Source: a virus. From it: a stretch of 64,000 nt of DNA. The stretch spans positions 62,001 through 126,000 of the IMG/VR virus record IMGVR_UViG_3300025810_000004, one strand, 5' to 3'. This document shows positions 9,511 to 58,212 of this stretch, piece after piece. Position 1 is the first letter of the stretch. Each line of letters begins with the position of its first letter. The position numbers and the translations under genes were made by a program. The notes beneath the pieces are model-generated. The model was not told the origin of the DNA. It saw nothing but the letters and a program-made list of their open reading frames with translations, and did not search any database.

Positions 9511-10704
9511 CTACGCCTTGGGCGGTCTCCACCCCACAGGGTCAGCCACCCACGGATGATCTACACCCTCGCCACGGCACAGGGGTGAGTCCTCTGGCGT
9601 CCAGTGACACCGTGCCTTCCCGCGTTTGGAGTGCTTGAGCCTATACTCTGCACGGAGGGCTTCGGAGCGGCTGTAGTACGGGCCGTAGCAGGCTCGGGCG
9701 ACCCACGGACGGTGCTTGGAAGTCCACTTTCCTCCTCCCTTCTTGCCCATCTTGCCGTTGGCGTAGCGCCCGTTGTGCTCACGGAGCCGTCGAGCCGGAT
9801 CTGTGGTCATCCCAACGTAAAAGTAGCCGGGGAGGACTCGACCCGTCTTGGGACTCACCCGCTTCTGCTCACTTTGCAAGACGTACACCCAGTAGAGGCG
9901 GGACCGCTTCTCCTTGACTTTCACATTTAGGCAGTTGGGGTCGTCCATGTGTTCCTCGATGATCTGGGACTCGACCTCAAGAGCCTCGTCGTCGGTGTCG
10001 CACTCCACCAGTACCCGCCATGTGGCGGTGCTCCAGTCCTGCTCGTTGAGGGCGGCTGTGTGACACCCCCTCGCAGATTTGCTCTTGTGGACATTGAACC
10101 GAAGGTCAGGACGGGTTGACTTGCCGTAGTAGTAGCAGCCATTGGCGAATGTAATGCAGTACACCCGTGGGCGCTTCGTGGCTTCCCTCTTGGCTCTCAG
10201 GGAATCCTTGTTCGCTTCCCGGTACTCGCGTTGGTACGCCGCCCTCATCTCCCGTCTGGCTCTCTCTGTGGCAACGATCCGCTCCTTGTTCGCTTCCCGG
10301 TACTCCCGCGCATGAGCCGCCTTCATCTCCCGTCTGGCTTTGCGGTACTCGCGTTGGTACGCCACATTCTTCGCCCGATTCGCCTCTCGGTAGGCTCTCT
10401 CTGTGGCAACGATCCGCTCCTTGTTCGCTTCCCGGTAGGCTGCAACCCGAACACTAATCTTCTCTTTGTTCGCTTCCCAGTACGCCTTCCCGCGAGCAGC
10501 GATTCGCTCCTTATTCGCTTCCCTGTAGGCTTTCAGACAAGCCTTGCAGTAGACCTGCAAGCCATCCTTCCGATTGCGGTCACGGTTGTACTCGGAGAGA
10601 GGCTTGTCCTCGCCGCACTTGCTACAGGTCTTCGTCGTCGGGGCGGCGGGATCCCGTTCAATCCCGAACAGGTCAAACACATCAAGGGTATCGTAGGGCA
10701 GCAT
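9511..10704 (-). CDS. tandem GIY-YIG endonuclease with zinc ribbon and helical repeats
   Basis: A 397-residue nuclease of unusual build. Residues ~25-55 form a zinc ribbon (CSKCGEDKP ... YCKAC) of the type found in phage homing endonucleases. Residues ~58-170 hold about eight imperfect repeats based on REANKERI, probably a charged helical spacer. Two GIY-YIG-type modules follow: VYCITFANGCYYYGKSTRPD with downstream Arg and His, then LYWVYVLQSE...GYFYVGMTTDPARRLREHN. One GIY-YIG domain normally cuts one strand, so two in one chain may act together. It is probably a mobile, free-standing homing-type enzyme. The start has AGAGGT upstream. Confidence 0.82.
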   Translation of the reverse strand: MLPYDTLDVFDLFGIERDPAAPTTKTCSKCGEDKPLSEYNRDRNRKDGLQVYCKACLKAYREANKERIAARGKAYWEANKEKISVRVAAYREANKERIVATERAYREANRAKNVAYQREYRKARREMKAAHAREYREANKERIVATERARREMRAAYQREYREANKDSLRAKREATKRPRVYCITFANGCYYYGKSTRPDLRFNVHKSKSARGCHTAALNEQDWSTATWRVLVECDTDDEALEVESQIIEEHMDDPNCLNVKVKEKRSRLYWVYVLQSEQKRVSPKTGRVLPGYFYVGMTTDPARRLREHNGRYANGKMGKKGGGKWTSKHRPWVARACYGPYYSRSEALRAEYRLKHSKRGKARCHWTPEDSPLCRGEGVDHPWVADPVGWRPPKA

Positions 10705-34794: not shown

Positions 34795-34849
34795 TTTACC
34801 AGCTGGTCCGGGTCCGTTGACCTATCTATAAGTTCGGTGAATTGTGACC

Positions 34850-36424
34850 ATGAAGATCTCCAACCTACATAAGCTGGTAGCCACACTTCCGGCACCCCAC
34901 CAAGGGATGTTCTGGCTGTGCTTTGTTGTGCTTTGCTGGCAGGGTCTATACTTGGCCGAATTCTTTGGCGAGTCACTTTACTCCTTCGTAGAGCGACCAG
35001 TTCAGCCCCCTGACAAGTGTGAATTCACCCCTGACCTCGGACAAGAAGCTGAGGGGATGGACCCAGGGGAGGTCCACTTTGTGGTGGATATGCGGTGCTC
35101 CGTGTCGAATTTCAGCACGGTGTTCGTCACCACCCCGCTCTGTGGGGACTGCGACGATGAAGGCTGGAACGAACTCCAAGACGAGGATGGGGACGGGACA
35201 TACGAGGGCAACATCCAGTTCGTGGATACCACGACCGACTCACCTCTGGTGGGGGCTGGGCTGATGTACAGATACGGTGTCACCATAGAATCCGGAAGCG
35301 GGTTCATGGCCACCTATCCAGAAAACCTCCTGCCCTCCAATTCGAATGACGTCTCCTGTGCCCCGTCCTCAGACGGTATGACCTATGCCTACAGGACCCT
35401 CGTGACCGACGGTGACGGAACCGAAGTGAAGGACATATTCGGTTCTTGCACGAGTGTCCCCATCCCATCTGAAGAATGGGACAAAATCCGGGACGAGGAG
35501 TGGCGTTCTGCCAACTCGTTCCTGTATGAACACGTGGACCCATGGTGGAAACCCACCTCCGAGTTCCTGACGAAATTCCAGGTCGTTCCCCCCATCCTGT
35601 TTTTGACCTTCTGTTCTCTCTTGTACGTTTACGCCACCTTCTTCATAGGCAGCAAATACGTCGGCAGGAAAGAAGCGGCCCTCCACAAAGCACTGGAAGA
35701 GACGAAGCACAAGAACACCTACTTGGAGCACGCGGCCAAGATCCTACGCCATGACATGCACTCGGGGATCAACACCTACATCCCCCGTGGCATCAAGTCG
35801 CTGGAGCGGCGCTTGGAGCAGGCCCAGAAGAACCAGACCATTCGCGTCTTCAACGACAAGGGCGAGGTGTCCCCACAAACGCTGGTCGGGGCGTTGCGCC
35901 TGGACGCCCCGCTACGGATGCTCAAGGAAGGGCTGGCACACACCCAGAAGGTCTACGCTGGCGTGTGCGAGTTCACCAACCTCGTGAAGGCTGGGTCCAA
36001 GATAAACACCAAGCCCCACGACGTGGGAGAGATCCTGAGGGACTATCTGGACACGGTGGAATACAAGAGCGAAGTCATAATAGACGACAACCTCCCAACC
36101 CTCGAAGTCAATGCGCCTCTTTTTTGCACCGCTCTGGACAACCTCATAAGAAACGGTCTGAAGTACAACGATTCTGCATCCAGAATGGTGACGGTCACCA
36201 AATTTGACGAGCATCACATAGCCGTTCTGGACAACGGCAGGGGGATGTCCCAAGAGGAATTCCTCGAATTTTCCAAGCCCTACACCCGCAAGGCCGGACA
36301 ACAAGAAAGTGGCATGGGTCTGGGGCTCAATATTTGCATAGCCATACTCAACGAACACGGGTTCTCTGTTTCTTCCTCGGTTAGACCAGAGGGCGGCACA
36401 GAAATAAAAGTGAGGATTTCTTGA
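34850..36424 (+). CDS. membrane-bound sensor histidine kinase
   Basis: Start ATG 34850 (GTG 34844 is an alternative). Residues ~18-40 form one transmembrane helix and ~245-268 a second, enclosing a ~200-residue extracytoplasmic domain with paired Cys and a DEDGDGTYEGNI stretch resembling carbohydrate-binding-like E-set domains. The cytoplasmic part has a dimerisation H-box AAKILRHDMHSGIN (candidate phospho-His ~301), N-box LDNLIRNGLKYND, G1 VLDNGRGM and G2 GMGLGLN. It should autophosphorylate and pass phosphate to the adjacent receiver protein. A complete kinase in a phage is very rare. Confidence 0.88.
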   Translation: MKISNLHKLVATLPAPHQGMFWLCFVVLCWQGLYLAEFFGESLYSFVERPVQPPDKCEFTPDLGQEAEGMDPGEVHFVVDMRCSVSNFSTVFVTTPLCGDCDDEGWNELQDEDGDGTYEGNIQFVDTTTDSPLVGAGLMYRYGVTIESGSGFMATYPENLLPSNSNDVSCAPSSDGMTYAYRTLVTDGDGTEVKDIFGSCTSVPIPSEEWDKIRDEEWRSANSFLYEHVDPWWKPTSEFLTKFQVVPPILFLTFCSLLYVYATFFIGSKYVGRKEAALHKALEETKHKNTYLEHAAKILRHDMHSGINTYIPRGIKSLERRLEQAQKNQTIRVFNDKGEVSPQTLVGALRLDAPLRMLKEGLAHTQKVYAGVCEFTNLVKAGSKINTKPHDVGEILRDYLDTVEYKSEVIIDDNLPTLEVNAPLFCTALDNLIRNGLKYNDSASRMVTVTKFDEHHIAVLDNGRGMSQEEFLEFSKPYTRKAGQQESGMGLGLNICIAILNEHGFSVSSSVRPEGGTEIKVRIS

Positions 36425-41759: not shown

Positions 41760-43670
41760 ATGCGGCTGTCCGATATAGCGGCGAATGTGGGTCGAACTGT
41801 CTCGGACTCTGACGACGTTGTAGACCCCATCACCTATATCGAGGCTCCTTGGGGTCTGAGTCTCCGCCTTTTCCCTGTGCAGAGGGTCATAATCAAGGCC
41901 CATTATGGGATGGAGCTGGACGACAACCCCCACGATTACCCCCTCGACCAGCCCGTCCCCCCCAACCATCCCGAATACGACCCCGTTCTCATGGACGAAG
42001 ACGGGTTCTACAAGTTCAGGATAGTGGTGACAAACTTCAGGAGGAAAAACCCTCAGTTCATGACTGAAGCTGGGTACCTGAAGTTCCTCCACAGCGAGGG
42101 CAGGTGCAACATAGACAAAGTCGTTCCCGGAAAGCAACGTCGGGAAATGGTACTGAGTGTCGGAAGGCGTAGTGGCAAGACCCTGATCACGTCCTGTATC
42201 GTAGCCTACGAGACCTACAAGCTGCTACTCAAGGGCAACCCACAGAAATACTACGGGTCCTCTCAGTCCAACGTGATCCAGCTGATCTCCGTCGCAACCG
42301 ACCGGGACCAAGCGGGTCTGCTGTACCGCGAAGCCTCCGGGCACTTCCAGAAGTGCGACTTCTTCAAGCCCTATGCGGCCAACGCAACCCAGAGCTTCGC
42401 CACCTTCCAGACCCCGTTCGACATCGAGAACTACGGGTCCTACAGGGACAACCCCAAGGCCCGGTACTCGATAAACGTGACGTTCCGTTCCTGCGTTGCA
42501 AAGGGACTCCGTGGTGGTGCCAACATTCTGGTCGCTCTGGACGAGGTTGCCCACTTCGGGGAGAAGGGGCAGGCGTCAGCCGACGAGGTGTACCAAGCTG
42601 TTGAGCCGAGTACTCGTACCTTCTCCCCCAAGGACCCCAACAACCAAACCCGCCCCATAGGGGAAAACGAAGGCCGGATCATCATGATCTCGTCACCGTT
42701 GGGGCGTCAGGGCCTTTTCTACAAGCAGTACCAACTCGGATTTGGGGACAACGAGGCAGCGGACAACCTTATCTGCATTCAGGCCCCGACCTGGGAGGTC
42801 AACCCCACCGTTCCAGCCAACACCTTCGTCGCTTCCTACCTGAAAGACCCCAACGTCTTCTTCACCGAGTTCGGTGCCGTATTCAGTGACAGAACGAGGG
42901 GCTGGATAACCAGCGAGAAGGACCTCACCGACTGCATCGACCCGGATTTGCGTCCGAGGCACAGGGCACCAGCTCTTGCGCCCCACTTCATGGGAATCGA
43001 CGTCGCTCTTGCGGGTGACTATTCTGCCATAGCAATAGGTCACAACACACCTGACGGCAAGATAGTCCTGGACCTCGTTGAGAGGATAAAAGCCGGGGAG
43101 GGCGACTACGAGGGGTACGACAGGCTGGAATTCGACGACGTTGCTGACTGGATCTTCAATTTCACGAAACGGTTCTACATAGTCCACGGGGTGTTCGACC
43201 AATGGCTCGGAATCCCCATGGAGCAGGCGCTGAAGAAGCGGGGGCTCACCAACCTCGAATCCCTGTACCACTCTCGTCAGGTCAGCAGCAACATATACCA
43301 GAATTTCAAGTCCCTCATGATGGACCAGAGGCTGGTGATGTACAACTGGCCCCTGACTGACGGCGAAGACTTCGCACCCCACATACAGGAATTGCTGGAA
43401 CTGGAGCAGGAAGTCGTCAGCAAATACATCGTTAAGGTCCAGGCCCCCAACATCGAAGGCAAGCACGACGATATGTCTGATGCTATAGCCCGTATGGTGT
43501 GGTGTGCCTCTCAGGATTCTACGCAGGTCAAGAAGGTCACCGGGTCCCGCAACAGCAAAGGCAAACCTGTGCGTTCAGGTGTGGGGAACAAAACCCCGAC
43601 GTTCGGCAGGAGCGCCAAGAAGTCGGGGAGGAGCGGATTCGGGAGCCACTCCTCGCGCCAGAAACGTTAG
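41760..43670 (+). CDS. terL: terminase large subunit
   Basis: The DNA-packaging motor and nuclease. ATPase domain: Walker A SVGRRSGKT near residues 133-141, Walker B ILVALDEVAHF, and coupling motif IIMISSPLG. RNase H-like nuclease domain: first Asp in HFMGIDVALAGDYSA, second in GVFDQW, third in EGKHDDMSDAIARM. At 636 residues it is a normal length for large-phage TerL, with a ~130-residue N-terminal extension and a basic Ser/Gly-rich tail. No intein or frame break. It would bind the portal encoded nearby at 44597. Confidence 0.95.
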   Translation: MRLSDIAANVGRTVSDSDDVVDPITYIEAPWGLSLRLFPVQRVIIKAHYGMELDDNPHDYPLDQPVPPNHPEYDPVLMDEDGFYKFRIVVTNFRRKNPQFMTEAGYLKFLHSEGRCNIDKVVPGKQRREMVLSVGRRSGKTLITSCIVAYETYKLLLKGNPQKYYGSSQSNVIQLISVATDRDQAGLLYREASGHFQKCDFFKPYAANATQSFATFQTPFDIENYGSYRDNPKARYSINVTFRSCVAKGLRGGANILVALDEVAHFGEKGQASADEVYQAVEPSTRTFSPKDPNNQTRPIGENEGRIIMISSPLGRQGLFYKQYQLGFGDNEAADNLICIQAPTWEVNPTVPANTFVASYLKDPNVFFTEFGAVFSDRTRGWITSEKDLTDCIDPDLRPRHRAPALAPHFMGIDVALAGDYSAIAIGHNTPDGKIVLDLVERIKAGEGDYEGYDRLEFDDVADWIFNFTKRFYIVHGVFDQWLGIPMEQALKKRGLTNLESLYHSRQVSSNIYQNFKSLMMDQRLVMYNWPLTDGEDFAPHIQELLELEQEVVSKYIVKVQAPNIEGKHDDMSDAIARMVWCASQDSTQVKKVTGSRNSKGKPVRSGVGNKTPTFGRSAKKSGRSGFGSHSSRQKR

Positions 43671-46567: not shown

Positions 46568-47029
46568 ATGGCAGTTGAAATCTGGAAAGCCAACGAAGAT
46601 ATCCACAAGCAGATGATGGCTCTGGTTGCCACCAATCATCCCGACTTAGCTCTATGCGTGGACGAGATCGTGATCGTCTTCCGCGAGAAGGCGGGAAAGG
46701 CTGGTGGTCAGGTCGTCCTCGGCAACTCCAAGAAGGTTGCGGCCATCGCCAATGCCATCGGGAACACCGACTATAAGTTCGTGCTCGAAATTGCCGCAGA
46801 CCAGTGGGAGAACGAACTGACCTCCCGACAGAAGGAAGCCCTTCTGGACCACCTCCTCTGTGCCTGCAGGGTGGACGAGGACCCCAAGTCTGGGAACATC
46901 AAGTACACCGTGGCGAAGCCCGACATCGCCGCGTACTCCGACAACGTGGAGCGGTACGGAATGTGGTTCCCGCGAGAGGAATCGGAAGCTGGGGAAGATG
47001 TGGCAGATTTGCTGCCTTCCGCGCAGTAG
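46568..47029 (+). CDS. degenerate phage metallopeptidase-like protein, 153 aa
   Basis: The layout matches the putative phage metallopeptidase family: a strand segment VDEIVIVFREKAGKAGGQVV, then YKFVLEIAADQWENEL, then a helix QKEALLDHLLCACRVDED. In active relatives the last helix reads DHELCH; here it reads DHLLCA, so the catalytic Glu and second His ligand are missing. It may be a non-catalytic binding protein. It begins the clamp-loader/NusG/sigma group. Confidence 0.6.
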   Translation: MAVEIWKANEDIHKQMMALVATNHPDLALCVDEIVIVFREKAGKAGGQVVLGNSKKVAAIANAIGNTDYKFVLEIAADQWENELTSRQKEALLDHLLCACRVDEDPKSGNIKYTVAKPDIAAYSDNVERYGMWFPREESEAGEDVADLLPSAQ

Positions 47030-47035
47030 GCCCCC

Positions 47036-47716
47036 ATGGCATTCGACACGAAGTACAGGCCCAAGACCTACAAAGAGGTCTTGGGTCAGGACACCACTGT
47101 GTCCATACTCAAGAAATACGTTTCAGAAGGCAAGGGGTTCCACCAATCTTATGTCTTCTGCGGCCAGCACGGTTCGGGCAAGACCACTCTTGCCCGAATT
47201 CTGGCCCGTGCCCTTCTGTGTCACCAGCCCGTAGAAGGTGCTCCCTGTGACGAGTGCAACTCCTGCCTGTCCTTGCTGAATGGACAGGGGCATGAGTGCT
47301 TCGAAGAACTGGACGCCGCCACGAAGTCTGGGAAGGACGACCTCGCTCGGATTATCGAGGACGCCAACTACAGCACGTTGAGCGGTTCCCGGCGCGTCTA
47401 CGTTATAGACGAGTGTTTCACTGAGGACACCGTTCTACTGACCCGTGACGGGTTCCGGTCCATTCGAGACATAGTGGATTCCAAATTCGTTGGGGAGGTT
47501 CTGTCTTTCGATCCTGACACCGGTAGGGAAATTTGGAAGCCCATAACGGATTGGTTTGACCTCGGTGAACGCGAGGTCATTACTCTGGAATTCGATAACG
47601 GGGTCGAGATCACTGTCACCCTCGGTCAGGAGCTTTACACCTCCAACCGTGGCTGGGTGAAAGTAGAAGATCTGACAGACCAGGACGACGTGGTGGAATC
47701 TTCGTGGGGTCAATAA
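47036..47716 (+). CDS. dnaX: DnaX-like clamp loader N-terminal part fused to intein N-half
   Basis: Residues 1-126 are the start of a DNA polymerase III gamma/tau-type AAA+ clamp loader: YRPKTYKEVLGQ, Walker A GQHGSGKTTLAR, and the four-Cys zinc module (Cys62, 71, 74, 77). The chain breaks inside Walker B at VYVIDE, and residue 127 Cys begins an intein: block A CFTEDTVLLTRDGFRSI, block B around VEITVTLGQELYTSNRGW, then a stop at 47714-47716 soon after VEDLTDQDDV. Block B has Gln where TxxH is usual, which may weaken splicing. At 100 residues the intein part has the size of natural split-intein N-halves. Confidence 0.85.
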   Translation: MAFDTKYRPKTYKEVLGQDTTVSILKKYVSEGKGFHQSYVFCGQHGSGKTTLARILARALLCHQPVEGAPCDECNSCLSLLNGQGHECFEELDAATKSGKDDLARIIEDANYSTLSGSRRVYVIDECFTEDTVLLTRDGFRSIRDIVDSKFVGEVLSFDPDTGREIWKPITDWFDLGEREVITLEFDNGVEITVTLGQELYTSNRGWVKVEDLTDQDDVVESSWGQ

Positions 47717-47717
47717 G

Positions 47718-48020
47718 TCTTTAGCTCTTGCTTATTGGTTCATGGATGACGGATCAATTGGTAGGAGGACCAAAAGTGGTGCACTGTTGAGTGCCTGTAT
47801 ACACACTTGTGGATTCGGGATTCCAGAGAACGAATTATTGGTAACATTCCTGAAAGAGAGATTCGGGTTGGAACCGATTTTAGCATTTTCCAAAGGTTAT
47901 CCTTACCTAAGGTTCAATGTAAAAAGCGCGCGAGCATTGGGGGAAATAATTACCCCATATTTGCACCCTTCTATGGCTTACAAAGGAAACTGCTTTGGCT
48001 CGACTGACGAACAAATCTGA
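47718..48020 (+). pseudogene. LAGLIDADG homing endonuclease remnant inside the intein
   Basis: In a frame different from both flanking intein halves lies SLALAYWFMDDGSIG, a LAGLIDADG second-motif signature, continuing through LLSACIHTCGFGIPENELLV to ITPYLHPSMAYKG, the usual end of such a domain. The first LAGLIDADG motif and ~100 residues that should precede it are missing, so it is probably a deletion remnant. This stretch is clearly more AT-rich than its surroundings. An ATG at 47742 could in principle start a free-standing 92-residue protein. Confidence 0.75.
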
Positions 48021-49122
48021 ACCTTTTCGCGCTCCAGTATATGATGTGACCGTGGAGGGGACACATTCTTTTTTTGCTGGTTCAGGCCCCACCCCCAACA
48101 GAGGTGTGCTGGTCCACAACTGCCACCGACTCTCCAAGAACGCACTGGACGTCCTGCTCAAGCCCATGGAGGACAATGTTCCTGGGTCTGAGAACAAGAG
48201 GCTCGTCATTCTGTTCTGCACCACGGAACCAGACAAGATGGTCGGGACCGTGTTCTCCAGATGCGCACCTGCTTTCACCATCAGACCCACATCGTTTGAG
48301 GAGATCTCGGATAGGTTGGCCTCCATCTGTGTGCTGGAGGGTATCAAATACGAGCCGACTGCCCTTCTGACCTTGGCTGAGATCAGCAAGAGTCACATCC
48401 GCGATGCCTTGAAGACCCTGGAGGGGGTCTCGGTCGTCAGCAACAGGGTCGTGGACGACAAGGCAGTCAGCTCGTATTTCAAATTCGATACCAACGAAGT
48501 CATCCTGAGTCTGTTGAAGGAGATACTCCTGGACAACAAACCAGAATGCTTCGAGTTGGCCGAGTCCGTGTCCCGTGACCTTGGCCCAAAGGTTTCGTAC
48601 GAGAGGCTTTCGGAAGCCTCGATGCTGGCCTATAGGTCGAGTCTGGGAATTCCGCCGAAGCGGACGTCTTGGGATCTCCAGAAACTCAGGGAGATCGGCG
48701 TGAACCACCAACAGGCTCTGTTGGAGGTCGCCAAGCACTTCGCCGCACCTCCAAACAGGTCTTCTGGTTCTTCCTTTGTATTGGACTGCGTGGGTTTCAC
48801 CCCCCACGTCAATACTGCCCCGACACCTCGAAGAGACACCAGCGAAAATAAGGGAGAAAAGGGGGAAGACAAGACCCCCGAAAAACTGGTAGACTACGAG
48901 AAGAGCAAGCAGGTGTCCCACCCTTCTGTTAATTCAGGTGGGGTGTATATCGAGCCCAAAGCAGTCAAGAAAATCGAAGATGGGGCAGGCGGGTATGATA
49001 CCCTGACTGTTCCGGTCGTCAAGACTAAGTCTTTAGACAGAGCTACGTTTATTAAGCTGCTGCAGGTGCACCTCGGAGGGGTCAACATAAATGCCAAAAG
49101 GGGAGTCTTGGATAGTTCTTGA
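47995..49122 (+). CDS. dnaX: intein C-half fused to DnaX-like clamp loader C-terminal part
   Basis: A TTG at 47995, preceded by AAAGGA with good spacing, opens a third frame. Its first 42 residues are an intein C-half: block F APVYDVTVEGTHSFF and block G VLVHN, with the penultimate His and terminal Asn. Cys at 48121 is the +1 extein residue, and the clamp loader resumes as CHRLSKNALDVLLKPMED, completing Walker B and sensor 1 (FCTTEPDK), then arginine-finger-type SRC and domain III. The C-terminal ~130 residues are a charged linker and small domain. If translated separately and joined by splicing, the product is a full clamp loader. Confidence 0.85.
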   Translation: MARLTNKSEPFRAPVYDVTVEGTHSFFAGSGPTPNRGVLVHNCHRLSKNALDVLLKPMEDNVPGSENKRLVILFCTTEPDKMVGTVFSRCAPAFTIRPTSFEEISDRLASICVLEGIKYEPTALLTLAEISKSHIRDALKTLEGVSVVSNRVVDDKAVSSYFKFDTNEVILSLLKEILLDNKPECFELAESVSRDLGPKVSYERLSEASMLAYRSSLGIPPKRTSWDLQKLREIGVNHQQALLEVAKHFAAPPNRSSGSSFVLDCVGFTPHVNTAPTPRRDTSENKGEKGEDKTPEKLVDYEKSKQVSHPSVNSGGVYIEPKAVKKIEDGAGGYDTLTVPVVKTKSLDRATFIKLLQVHLGGVNINAKRGVLDSS

Positions 49123-49612
49123 ACTTTCTTTCCAAGGGGAAAGATTAGCCTCTTACGGCTCGCTTCTGGAATTTCTGTGCTCCATAGCTCACCTTGAAGA
49201 CGAAGAAGAAGACCTCATATTCATACCCTATGCGGTGTTGAATTCCAAGAATTCCAAACACGTCCTGAACGTCATGGAAGGGTACTGCTTCGTCCACGAG
49301 TCCATCCCCGAAGACGCTCTGGCAACCCTCATAAATAGCGAGTACATATCCGGAACAGTTTCCCAGGGCAGAAACACCTATGGCACCGTTGACGGCCAAG
49401 CCATAGCCGGAATAAAGAACAAACTGGGGGAAATGGTATCCTCCAAACTTGAGAAGGGACAGCCAGTCAGAGTCATTGGAGGTCCCTTCAAAGGTATAGT
49501 CGGGGTAATACAGATAAAGGGCTCCACCAGCTCTTGTGTGCACTTCTCTTTCAGGTCCATGGAGACCATGAGGGTCGTGTTCAACTACCTATTGGAGCCC
49601 TACGATGCCTAG
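49091..49612 (+). CDS. NusG-like transcription elongation factor (NGN + KOW)
   Basis: 173 residues. The N-terminal half (SWIVLELSFQGERLASYGSL, LIFIPYAV, GYCFVHESIPEDALATL) has the NGN fold pattern of NusG/RfaH proteins that bind RNA polymerase. The C-terminal KOW domain reads GQPVRVIGGPFKGIVGVIQI. It would modulate transcript elongation or antitermination of phage genes. It overlaps dnaX by 32 nt and the sigma-like gene by 8 nt, so these three are likely one operon. Confidence 0.8.
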   Translation: MPKGESWIVLELSFQGERLASYGSLLEFLCSIAHLEDEEEDLIFIPYAVLNSKNSKHVLNVMEGYCFVHESIPEDALATLINSEYISGTVSQGRNTYGTVDGQAIAGIKNKLGEMVSSKLEKGQPVRVIGGPFKGIVGVIQIKGSTSSCVHFSFRSMETMRVVFNYLLEPYDA

Positions 49613-50222
49613 CAACTGGTATTCCCACGTCTTCATGGACCCCTCCGACATAGAGAAATTCTTCTCCTCCGACAGGGGGCTGCACGAGATATATGGGGAG
49701 ACCCCGGAAGACAAAGAAGAAGTCAACAACGAGCAGCTATCCCAAATCAGAAAAGTGCTGCACAGAATCCCCCCGAGGGAAGCCGACTTCGTGGAGTTGT
49801 ACTACTTCCACGAGGTGAAGCAGGCAGCGATAGCTGAGCTGTTTGGTGTCAGCCAGCCCACCATCTGCTACAGACTCCAGAGGGCTTCCAAGAGAATCAA
49901 GTACCTCATAGAGCTTCCAGAATACGAAGAAAAGAAACTGGCCAAATTCCTGAACATGGTCCTGTCCGACCCAGTGGACATAGAGATCATGAGGCTGATG
50001 CTATTGACCACCTGCCAGAGCGAAGTCGCAAGGTCCCTCAATGCCTCGCAGGGCTTCGTCAGGCACAGATTCTACAGGTCCCTGAAGAAGATCAAGGACT
50101 ATCCGGGTGCAGAATCCAAACTGTACCAGAAGGTGTTCACGCACCTATCCCAGAACCTGAACGTTCTGAAGAGTGACGACAAGCTCAAGAAGACCGAGCC
50201 CATGGTGTTCGTCCTGGGGTGA
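49605..50222 (+). CDS. sigma-factor-like protein with two helix-turn-helix units
   Basis: 205 residues. LHRIPPREADFVELYYFHEV then AAIAELFGVSQPTICYRLQR matches sigma-70 region 4 (-35-type helix-turn-helix). A second similar unit, LLTTCQSEVARSLNASQGFV, follows near residue 145. No clear region 2 (-10 binding) is visible, recalling small phage late sigma factors. Together with the NusG-like gene, it is the obvious candidate to read the TATA-type elements in this window. Confidence 0.75.
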   Translation: MPSNWYSHVFMDPSDIEKFFSSDRGLHEIYGETPEDKEEVNNEQLSQIRKVLHRIPPREADFVELYYFHEVKQAAIAELFGVSQPTICYRLQRASKRIKYLIELPEYEEKKLAKFLNMVLSDPVDIEIMRLMLLTTCQSEVARSLNASQGFVRHRFYRSLKKIKDYPGAESKLYQKVFTHLSQNLNVLKSDDKLKKTEPMVFVLG

Positions 50223-57933: not shown

Positions 57934-58021
57934 TGGCGGAGAGAGTGGGATTCGAACCCACGGTACGTTGCCGCACACTCGCGTTCCAGGCGAGCACCTT
58001 CGTCCACTCGGTCATCTCTCC
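57934..58021 (-). tRNA. tRNA-Ser(GGA)
   Basis: Read on the minus strand: acceptor GGAGAGA pairs perfectly with TCTCTCC. The anticodon stem CTCGC/GCGAG encloses loop CTGGAAC (anticodon GGA, reading UCC/UCU). There is a long variable arm, T-arm GTGGG-TTCGAAT-CCCAC, discriminator G and an encoded CCA. All elements of a type II tRNA are intact. Confidence 0.92.
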
Positions 58022-58033
58022 AAAATTCTACGG

Positions 58034-58116
58034 TAGGGACGGTGGGATTCGAACCCACAAGACCGTAAGGCCAGCAGATTTTAAATCTGCCATGTCTACC
58101 ATTCCATCACATCCCC
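58034..58116 (-). tRNA. tRNA-Leu(UAA)
   Basis: Acceptor GGGGATG pairs with CGTCCCT (two wobble pairs). The anticodon loop TTTAAAA in stem GCAGA/TCTGC gives anticodon TAA. The variable arm is long, T-arm GTGGG/CCCAC is perfect and the discriminator is A. CCA is not encoded (CCG follows). Reads UUA, a codon rare in the GC-rich genes here. Confidence 0.9.
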
Positions 58117-58123
58117 GAAAAAA

Positions 58124-58195
58124 TGGACCCGGTGGGAGTCGAACCCCTGACCCCCTGCGTGCAGGCAGGTGCTCTCCCAACTGAGCTACAGCCCC
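58124..58195 (-). tRNA. tRNA-Ala(UGC), imperfect T-stem and acceptor
   Basis: Acceptor GGGGCTG, D-arm TAGCTCAGTTGGGAGAGCAC and anticodon stem-loop CCTGC-CTGCACG-CAGGG (anticodon TGC) are typical. The acceptor 3' strand CGGGTCC pairs with one G-G mismatch but keeps the G3-U70 alanine identity pair. The T-stem AGGGG/CCCAC has only three pairs. CCA is not encoded. It may be functional with loss of stability, or decaying. Confidence 0.75.
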
Positions 58196-58212
58196 ATTAT
58201 GTCGTCAAAGTT

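What the first reader, a model, noticed from the sequence alone, without database searches (positions are those of the whole stretch)
47036..49122. Clamp-loader gene fractured by an apparent split intein with a frame-shifted endonuclease remnant
The DnaX-like protein is broken inside Walker B (VIDE | CH). The N-half of an intein (100 residues, blocks A and B) ends with its own stop at 47716. The C-half (42 residues, blocks F and G ending VHN) starts in another frame at TTG 47995 behind AAAGGA. A LAGLIDADG remnant in a third frame lies between, more AT-rich than its flanks and lacking its first half. Half sizes match known natural split inteins, and the layout matches published 'fractured genes' in phage metagenomes. 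A +1 Cys, penultimate His and terminal Asn are present; block B has Gln instead of the usual TxxH His. This may be a contiguous intein caught turning into a split one by deletion, in an essential replication gene.
Basis: partly seen in the sequence, partly recalled or inferred. Interest (0 to 1): 0.92.

Follow-up and report, generated by a model that had tools for sequence, protein, structure and literature searches.

The report
Split intein in phage clamp loader
A phage's DNA-clamp-loader gene is made in two pieces, each carrying half of a self-splicing protein element that should rejoin them, and the DNA between them is the leftover of the selfish DNA-cutting gene that once spread the element; related phages still carry the whole cutter, a one-piece version, or nothing at all.

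Summary
Window 47036-49122 encodes a phage DnaX-type clamp loader broken inside Walker B (VIDE|CH) by a 100-aa IntN with its own stop, a LAGLIDADG_2 half-domain in a second frame, and a 42-aa IntC starting at TTG 47995 in a third. The interpretation needs correcting. In three independent relatives (L011, L071, L014) the same site holds the same three-gene layout, with a complete free-standing homing-endonuclease gene (355-406 aa) whose stop overlaps the IntC start codon. So the separate frames are inherited, not frameshifts or assembly errors. The window is an already-split intein that lost the 5' part of its endonuclease gene, not a contiguous intein in the act of splitting. Of 90 distinct phage dnaX loci, 84 are uninterrupted, 4 are split and 2 carry a contiguous mini-intein; split and contiguous forms interleave in the intein tree. 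IntN and IntC are under purifying selection. Block B has Gln instead of His in four of six inteins, including one contiguous intein that presumably works. Most likely function: protein trans-splicing that restores DnaX. This is a new member of the published 'fractured gene' kind, with an unusually complete series of states at one site. Splicing is inferred, not shown.

The parts
47036..47413 (+). N-extein: DnaX-type clamp loader residues 1-126, with Walker A (GQHGSGKTT) and Walker B up to VIDE
   Evidence: PF13177 5.9e-16 and phrog_5846 1.9e-29; 72% identical to L011, 69% to uninterrupted L004
47414..47716 (+). IntN, 100 aa, Cys1 to Gln100, with its own stop TAA at 47714-47716; block B TLGQ (Gln at 47627-47629)
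   Evidence: 73-74% identical to L011 IntN; profile matches NrdJ-1 split intein 1.2e-10
47718..48020 (+). remnant of a free-standing LAGLIDADG_2 homing endonuclease gene: second LAGLIDADG motif (LAYWFMDDG) to the natural end (HPSMAYKG); first half and CxCGCG repeats missing; no usable ribosome site seen
   Evidence: PF03161 101-167/168 E 1.7e-10; 45% identical to the C-terminal part of the L011 endonuclease; IntN stop to IntC start is 278 bases against 1069-1210 in relatives
47982..47987 (+). AAAGGA, likely ribosome-binding site of the IntC gene, 7 bases before TTG
   Evidence: sequence; purine-rich stretches at the same place in L011, L014 and L071
47995..48120 (+). IntC, 42 aa, TTG start, block F VYDVTVEGTHSFFA and block G VLVHN (penultimate His, terminal Asn 48118-48120); start overlaps the endonuclease stop by 26 bases
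   Evidence: 76-79% identical to L011 IntC; overlap is 8-26 bases in all four split loci
48121..49122 (+). C-extein: DnaX residues from +1 Cys (CHRLS), SRC motif (SRCAPAF), lid and C-terminal region
   Evidence: PF13177, DNAX lid and RFC1 lid matches, phrog_5846 1.5e-18
46568..47029 (+). upstream neighbour, phage metallopeptidase-like; same neighbour in L004, L011 and L014
   Evidence: PF18894 6e-19; synteny
49091..50222 (+). downstream neighbours: antiterminator-like protein and sigma-70 region 4 protein; same order in L004, L011, L012 and L014
   Evidence: phrog_6386 1.9e-5, PF08281 2.6e-12; synteny

Best explanation
dnaX of this phage is a fractured gene. Two neighbouring genes make DnaX(1-126)-IntN and IntC-DnaX(C). 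The two intein halves bind each other, fold into one HINT domain and ligate the exteins by protein trans-splicing, restoring Walker B (DE|CH) and so the ATPase (inferred). The DNA between them is the dead 3' part of a free-standing LAGLIDADG_2 homing-endonuclease gene that in relatives is complete and presumably spread the element into uninterrupted dnaX alleles (inferred). In the window a deletion of very roughly 0.8-0.9 kb removed the 5' part of that gene and left the two intein halves and the IntC start intact. The element should therefore still splice but no longer home by itself. Shown: layout, homology, exact site, conservation, loss of the endonuclease first half. Inferred: splicing, homing, direction of change.
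For: Same three-gene layout with a complete endonuclease in L011, L071 and L014, with each IntC start overlapping the endonuclease stop by 8-26 bases. L014 locus identical in three metagenome assemblies. Exact insertion: 84 uninterrupted dnaX genes align across the site with no gap. Cys1, block F Asp/His, terminal Asn and +1 Cys kept in all six inteins; +1 is Cys in 6/6 intein alleles against 9/84 empty ones, Fisher p 8e-6. Window vs L011: IntN dN 0.22, dS 2.6; IntC dN 0.17, dS 2.4, so strong purifying selection, although dS is near saturation. IntN profile matches NrdJ-1, a split intein, at 1.2e-10. The model of the contiguous homologue L074 matches inteins (NrdJ-1 5.6e-8; Spirulina DnaX mini-intein TM 0.68-0.75). 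The complete endonuclease model matches I-WcaI and I-SceI, 4.7e-13. The window remnant is the only LAGLIDADG_2 match in its own record. No Rfam match, so no known group I intron.
Against: Block B His is Gln in the window. No splicing data exist. The remnant frame is still open over about 100 codons (chance about 0.1% by base shuffling), so the deletion is recent or the frame is kept for some reason. The window's DnaX sits on a long branch (0.79), so relaxed or altered function is possible. IntC alone matches solved inteins only weakly (E 0.025). No second assembly with the deletion junction was found (near records may be excluded). The L074 model is of modest confidence (pLDDT 64.5).
Confidence: 0.83

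Rival explanations
1. Contiguous intein with an embedded endonuclease, newly broken by deletion and frameshift, possibly now splicing as two halves.
For: Contiguous mini-inteins exist at the same site (L012, L074), and related LAGLIDADG_2 domains sit inside contiguous phage inteins elsewhere (L039).
Against: The closest intein relative L011, and L071 and L014, are already split with a complete separate endonuclease gene that has its own stop and N-terminal Cys-rich repeats. The IntC start position is shared by all four split loci.
Confidence: 0.05
2. Sequencing or assembly error created the stops and frame changes in an intact gene.
For: Single metagenome-derived record; no raw reads available; no exact match to the junction in other IMG/VR records.
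Against: Three independent loci show the same layout, one of them identical in three assemblies. Removing errors would still leave half an endonuclease. A missing stretch of about 0.8-0.9 kb is not a base-call error.
Confidence: 0.04
3. Splicing is dead or unnecessary: the two DnaX halves work as separate, non-covalently associated polypeptides, or DnaX is decaying.
For: Block B His missing; long branch of the window DnaX; a phage ribonucleotide reductase is known to work in two pieces (Friedrich 2007, as cited in PMC10448857).
Against: IntN and IntC keep their other catalytic residues and evolve no faster than the exteins, with dN far below dS. Gln is also found in the contiguous intein L074, where splicing is presumably required. 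Walker A, sensor 1 and SRC motifs are intact.
Confidence: 0.1
4. The endonuclease remnant is still a product (a one-motif LAGLIDADG protein acting as a homodimer), kept open by selection.
For: Open frame over about 100 codons, unlikely by chance; the second motif is intact.
Against: The only in-frame start seen, ATG 47742, lies inside the LAGLIDADG helix with no ribosome site. The complete relatives are two-motif, I-SceI-like proteins.
Confidence: 0.05

Closest known systems
Fractured genes with split inteins and a free-standing endonuclease (Dassa et al. 2009, NAR 37:2560; full text not held here, described from memory and from citing papers)
   Same: Phage DNA-synthesis gene cut in two by a split intein with an endonuclease gene in between
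   Different: Host gene is dnaX at Walker B; endonuclease is LAGLIDADG_2 with CxCGCG repeats (Dassa's new family was Vsr-like, from memory); in the window the endonuclease is mostly gone
Split PolB intein with HNH endonuclease gene in Pseudomonas jumbo phage MIJ3, with a mini-intein counterpart in Salicola phage SCTP-2 (PMC6892783)
   Same: Split intein plus separate endonuclease gene in one phage, contiguous mini-intein in the same gene in another
   Different: Different host gene and endonuclease family; only two phages compared, with no empty-site series
NrdJ-1 natural split intein (PDB 8ubs)
   Same: Best sequence and fold match of IntN and of the contiguous homologue; split by nature
   Different: Different host gene; block B has His
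Spirulina platensis DnaX mini-intein (PDB 7cfv)
   Same: Intein in a DnaX protein; TM-score 0.68-0.75 to the L074 intein model
   Different: Contiguous, cyanobacterial, 18% identical; whether it sits at the same position was not tested
I-SceI / I-WcaI LAGLIDADG endonucleases
   Same: Fold of the complete endonuclease in L011
   Different: I-SceI is a mitochondrial group I intron enzyme (own knowledge); here the gene lies between split-intein halves and has extra N-terminal Cys-rich repeats

Membership tests
Natural split intein | IntN and IntC encoded by two separate reading frames, each fused to one part of the same host protein | tested here: met
   repeated in L011, L071 and L014
Natural split intein | Cys or Ser at intein position 1; Asn at the end; Cys, Ser or Thr at +1 | tested here: met
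   Cys 47414, Asn 48118-48120, Cys 48121; kept in six of six
Natural split intein | Homology to solved inteins / HINT fold | tested here: met
   IntN profile to NrdJ-1 1.2e-10; model of contiguous homologue L074 to inteins 5.6e-8; IntC alone weak, 0.025
Natural split intein | Protein trans-splicing activity | not testable with these tools
   Needs expression or proteomics
Canonical class 1 intein active site | Block B TxxH His (usual, but natural inteins lacking it are known: PMC6333167) | tested here: not met
   Window TLGQ, L011 TTNQ, L014 and L074 TTDQ; L071 TREH and L012 TSNH have His
Fractured gene (split intein + free-standing endonuclease gene) | Conserved DNA-metabolism gene broken in two by a split intein | tested here: met
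   DnaX at Walker B, 84 uninterrupted homologues
Fractured gene (split intein + free-standing endonuclease gene) | Complete endonuclease gene between the halves | tested here: not met
   Complete in L011, L071 and L014; only the C-terminal part remains in the window, so the window locus is a decayed descendant of such an arrangement, not an intact one
LAGLIDADG_2 homing endonuclease (PF03161) | Two LAGLIDADG motifs in one domain | tested here: not met
   Window keeps profile positions 101-167 of 168; L011 has 2-166
DnaX/gamma-tau clamp loader | AAA+ ATPase with Walker A, Walker B, sensor 1, SRC motif and DnaX lid | tested here: met
   PF13177 in both halves, lid domain matches, phrog_5846; motifs read

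The most novel reading that the evidence does not exclude
At this one dnaX site the split, endonuclease-bearing form is ancestral, and contiguous mini-inteins (L012, L074) arose at least twice by loss of the endonuclease gene and re-fusion of the two halves, so inteins pass back from split to contiguous; the window is a phage that lost the endonuclease without re-fusing.
Probability: 0.45. Interest if true: 0.72.

Novelty: new member of a known kind. Interest (0 to 1): 0.56.

Why it matters
Split inteins are widely used protein-ligation tools, and how they arise from, or revert to, contiguous ones is still argued. This site gives uninterrupted, split with full endonuclease, split with dead endonuclease, and contiguous endonuclease-free versions in related phages at the same residue pair, so each step can be compared and tested. 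It also gives four new natural split inteins, three of them with Gln instead of the block B His, whose activity would say what that residue is needed for. No natural split DnaX intein was found in the open-access papers searched, which is weak evidence of absence.

Tried and rejected
Frameshift or assembly error: rejected by the shared layout in relatives. Group I intron: no Rfam match, and protein-level intein motifs are present. A second dnaX or a second LAGLIDADG_2 gene in the same record: none; the other PF13177 match at record position 41780 looks like a delta-prime subunit. Block B Gln as a mark of splitting: rejected, because contiguous L074 has Gln and split L071 has His. Other records with the same deletion junction: none found. 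Endonuclease remnants in the linkers of L012 and L074: none seen in any frame. Generic intein model PF14890 on the record: no match, probably because the halves are short and divergent. Dassa 2009 and Carvajal-Vallejos 2012 are not held.

Full report
What is there. The window is bases 62001-126000 of a 158,946-base virus record. At 47036-49122 lies a DnaX-type clamp-loader gene in two reading frames, with a third frame between them. The first ORF carries DnaX residues 1-126 and then CFTEDTVLL..., an IntN of 100 residues that ends at TAA 47714-47716. The last ORF starts at TTG 47995, seven bases behind AAAGGA, and carries a 42-residue IntC ending VLVHN and then CHRLS.... The middle frame holds the second half of a LAGLIDADG_2 domain (PF03161 positions 101-167 of 168, E 1.7e-10) at 43% G+C against 52-56% around it.

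Is the site exact? Searches of 2.9 million viral contigs with the N-half, the C-half and the endonuclease gave 90 distinct dnaX loci. In 84 the gene is uninterrupted and aligns across the site with no gap, reading DE|SH, DE|AH or DE|CH. Six are interrupted at exactly this residue pair. The +1 residue is Cys in all six interrupted genes and in 9 of 84 others (p 8e-6). The closest phages by terminase (71-73% identity: contigs of L289, L290 and L291) are the contigs of L052, L055 and L061, whose dnaX is uninterrupted.

What the relatives show. L011 (IntN 73-74% identical), L071 and L014 each have DnaX-IntN with its own stop, then a complete free-standing gene of 406, 395 or 355 aa, then IntC-DnaX. 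L014 is identical over the compared 3.1 kb in three metagenome assemblies. The middle gene has a full LAGLIDADG_2 domain with two motifs (PF03161 1.1e-26 in L011) and Cys-rich CxCGCG repeats in front. Its model matches I-WcaI and I-SceI (4.7e-13). The IntC start overlaps the endonuclease stop by 13, 26 and 8 bases in these three, and by 26 in the window. From IntN stop to IntC start there are 1210, 1172 and 1069 bases in the three, but 278 in the window. The window has therefore lost very roughly 0.8-0.9 kb, the 5' part of the endonuclease gene, while the split itself is older. L012 (a 485-kb phage) and L074 (a 619-kb phage) carry a contiguous mini-intein with no endonuclease at the same place.

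Order of events. In the DnaX tree of 90 loci the six interrupted genes lie apart, each beside uninterrupted neighbours, for example L011 with L051 (100/95) and L074 with L101 (100/99). This fits gain by homing, repeated loss, or both. In the intein tree split L071 pairs with contiguous L012 (100/99) and split L014 with contiguous L074 (97/97), so at least two changes between split and contiguous are needed. By parsimony an ancestral split form with two re-fusions needs two changes; an ancestral contiguous form needs three, plus three gains of homologous endonuclease genes. In L012 the sequence before the IntC-equivalent strand reads AAAGGGGGATGCCCGGCTGGTC, which looks like a leftover ribosome site and start codon; this is suggestive only and was not tested statistically. 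Independent invasions of contiguous inteins by the same endonuclease are not excluded.

Does it work? Between window and L011, IntN has dN 0.22 and dS 2.6, IntC dN 0.17 and dS 2.4; dS is near saturation, but the contrast is strong. IntN and IntC are as well conserved as, or better conserved than, the exteins (N-extein 72%, C-extein 56%). Cys1, the block F Asp and His, the terminal Asn and the +1 Cys are kept in all six. Block B His is replaced by Gln in the window, L011, L014 and contiguous L074, and kept in L071 and L012. Inteins naturally lacking this His exist, and a bulky -1 residue can compensate in one engineered case (PMC6333167); the -1 residue here is Glu. The IntN profile matches the NrdJ-1 split intein at 1.2e-10, and the model of L074's intein (pLDDT 64.5) matches inteins and other HINT domains throughout its listed hits. 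IntN is acidic (net -14) and IntC about neutral (+1). That splicing happens is inferred.

What it is. It works like a natural split intein, and the locus is a decayed descendant of the fractured-gene arrangement described by Dassa et al. 2009 (not held; known to me by its abstract and through citing papers). A close published parallel is phage MIJ3, where a split PolB intein holds an HNH gene and another jumbo phage has a mini-intein in the same gene (PMC6892783). The block B residue and the incomplete endonuclease are reported as unmet features. New here are the host gene, the endonuclease family at such a site, and the range of states at one residue pair.

Limits. No reads, no proteomics and no second assembly of the window junction (near records may be excluded). 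The record may be a fragment: no polymerase A, polymerase III alpha or beta clamp was found in it, so the need for this DnaX is inferred from its conservation. The window DnaX lies on a long branch (0.79), unexplained. Papers were searched only in an open-access library.

Noticed in passing
record G000:C1:41780-41953 and following (L002:1306-2999): A delta-prime-like clamp-loader protein, apparently lacking a proper P-loop, with an overlapping ORF downstream that may be a delta-like subunit, about 67 kb from dnaX.
   Followed up: partly
47036-49122: The window DnaX has a much longer branch (0.79) than its nearest relatives (about 0.1-0.3), mainly from its C-half (52-56% identity where relatives share 73-79%).
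   Followed up: partly
L228:1243-3249 (record of L011): A LAGLIDADG_2 domain in front of what looks like a DNA methyltransferase domain in one 669-aa frame.
   Followed up: no
G005:C1:245512-247678 (L224, L227; record of L074): Three LAGLIDADG_2 matches in a row in a 619-kb phage record.
   Followed up: no
L039:4377-6488: Contiguous intein with an embedded LAGLIDADG_2 domain related to this endonuclease, in what looks like a sigma-factor-like phage protein.
   Followed up: partly
9511-10704 (minus strand): GIY-YIG protein of 397 aa (PF01541 2.3e-19, two stretches), possibly another mobile endonuclease.
   Followed up: no
34844-36424: Phage protein with a histidine-kinase-type ATPase domain (PF02518 2.1e-13).
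   Followed up: no
57934-58196 (minus strand): Three tRNA genes in a row, one with an odd two-base anticodon call.
   Followed up: no
L104, L089, L109, L110: Uninterrupted dnaX genes with Cys at +1 fall near intein-bearing L014 and L074 in the tree, which could be scars of precise intein loss or sites ready for invasion.
   Followed up: no
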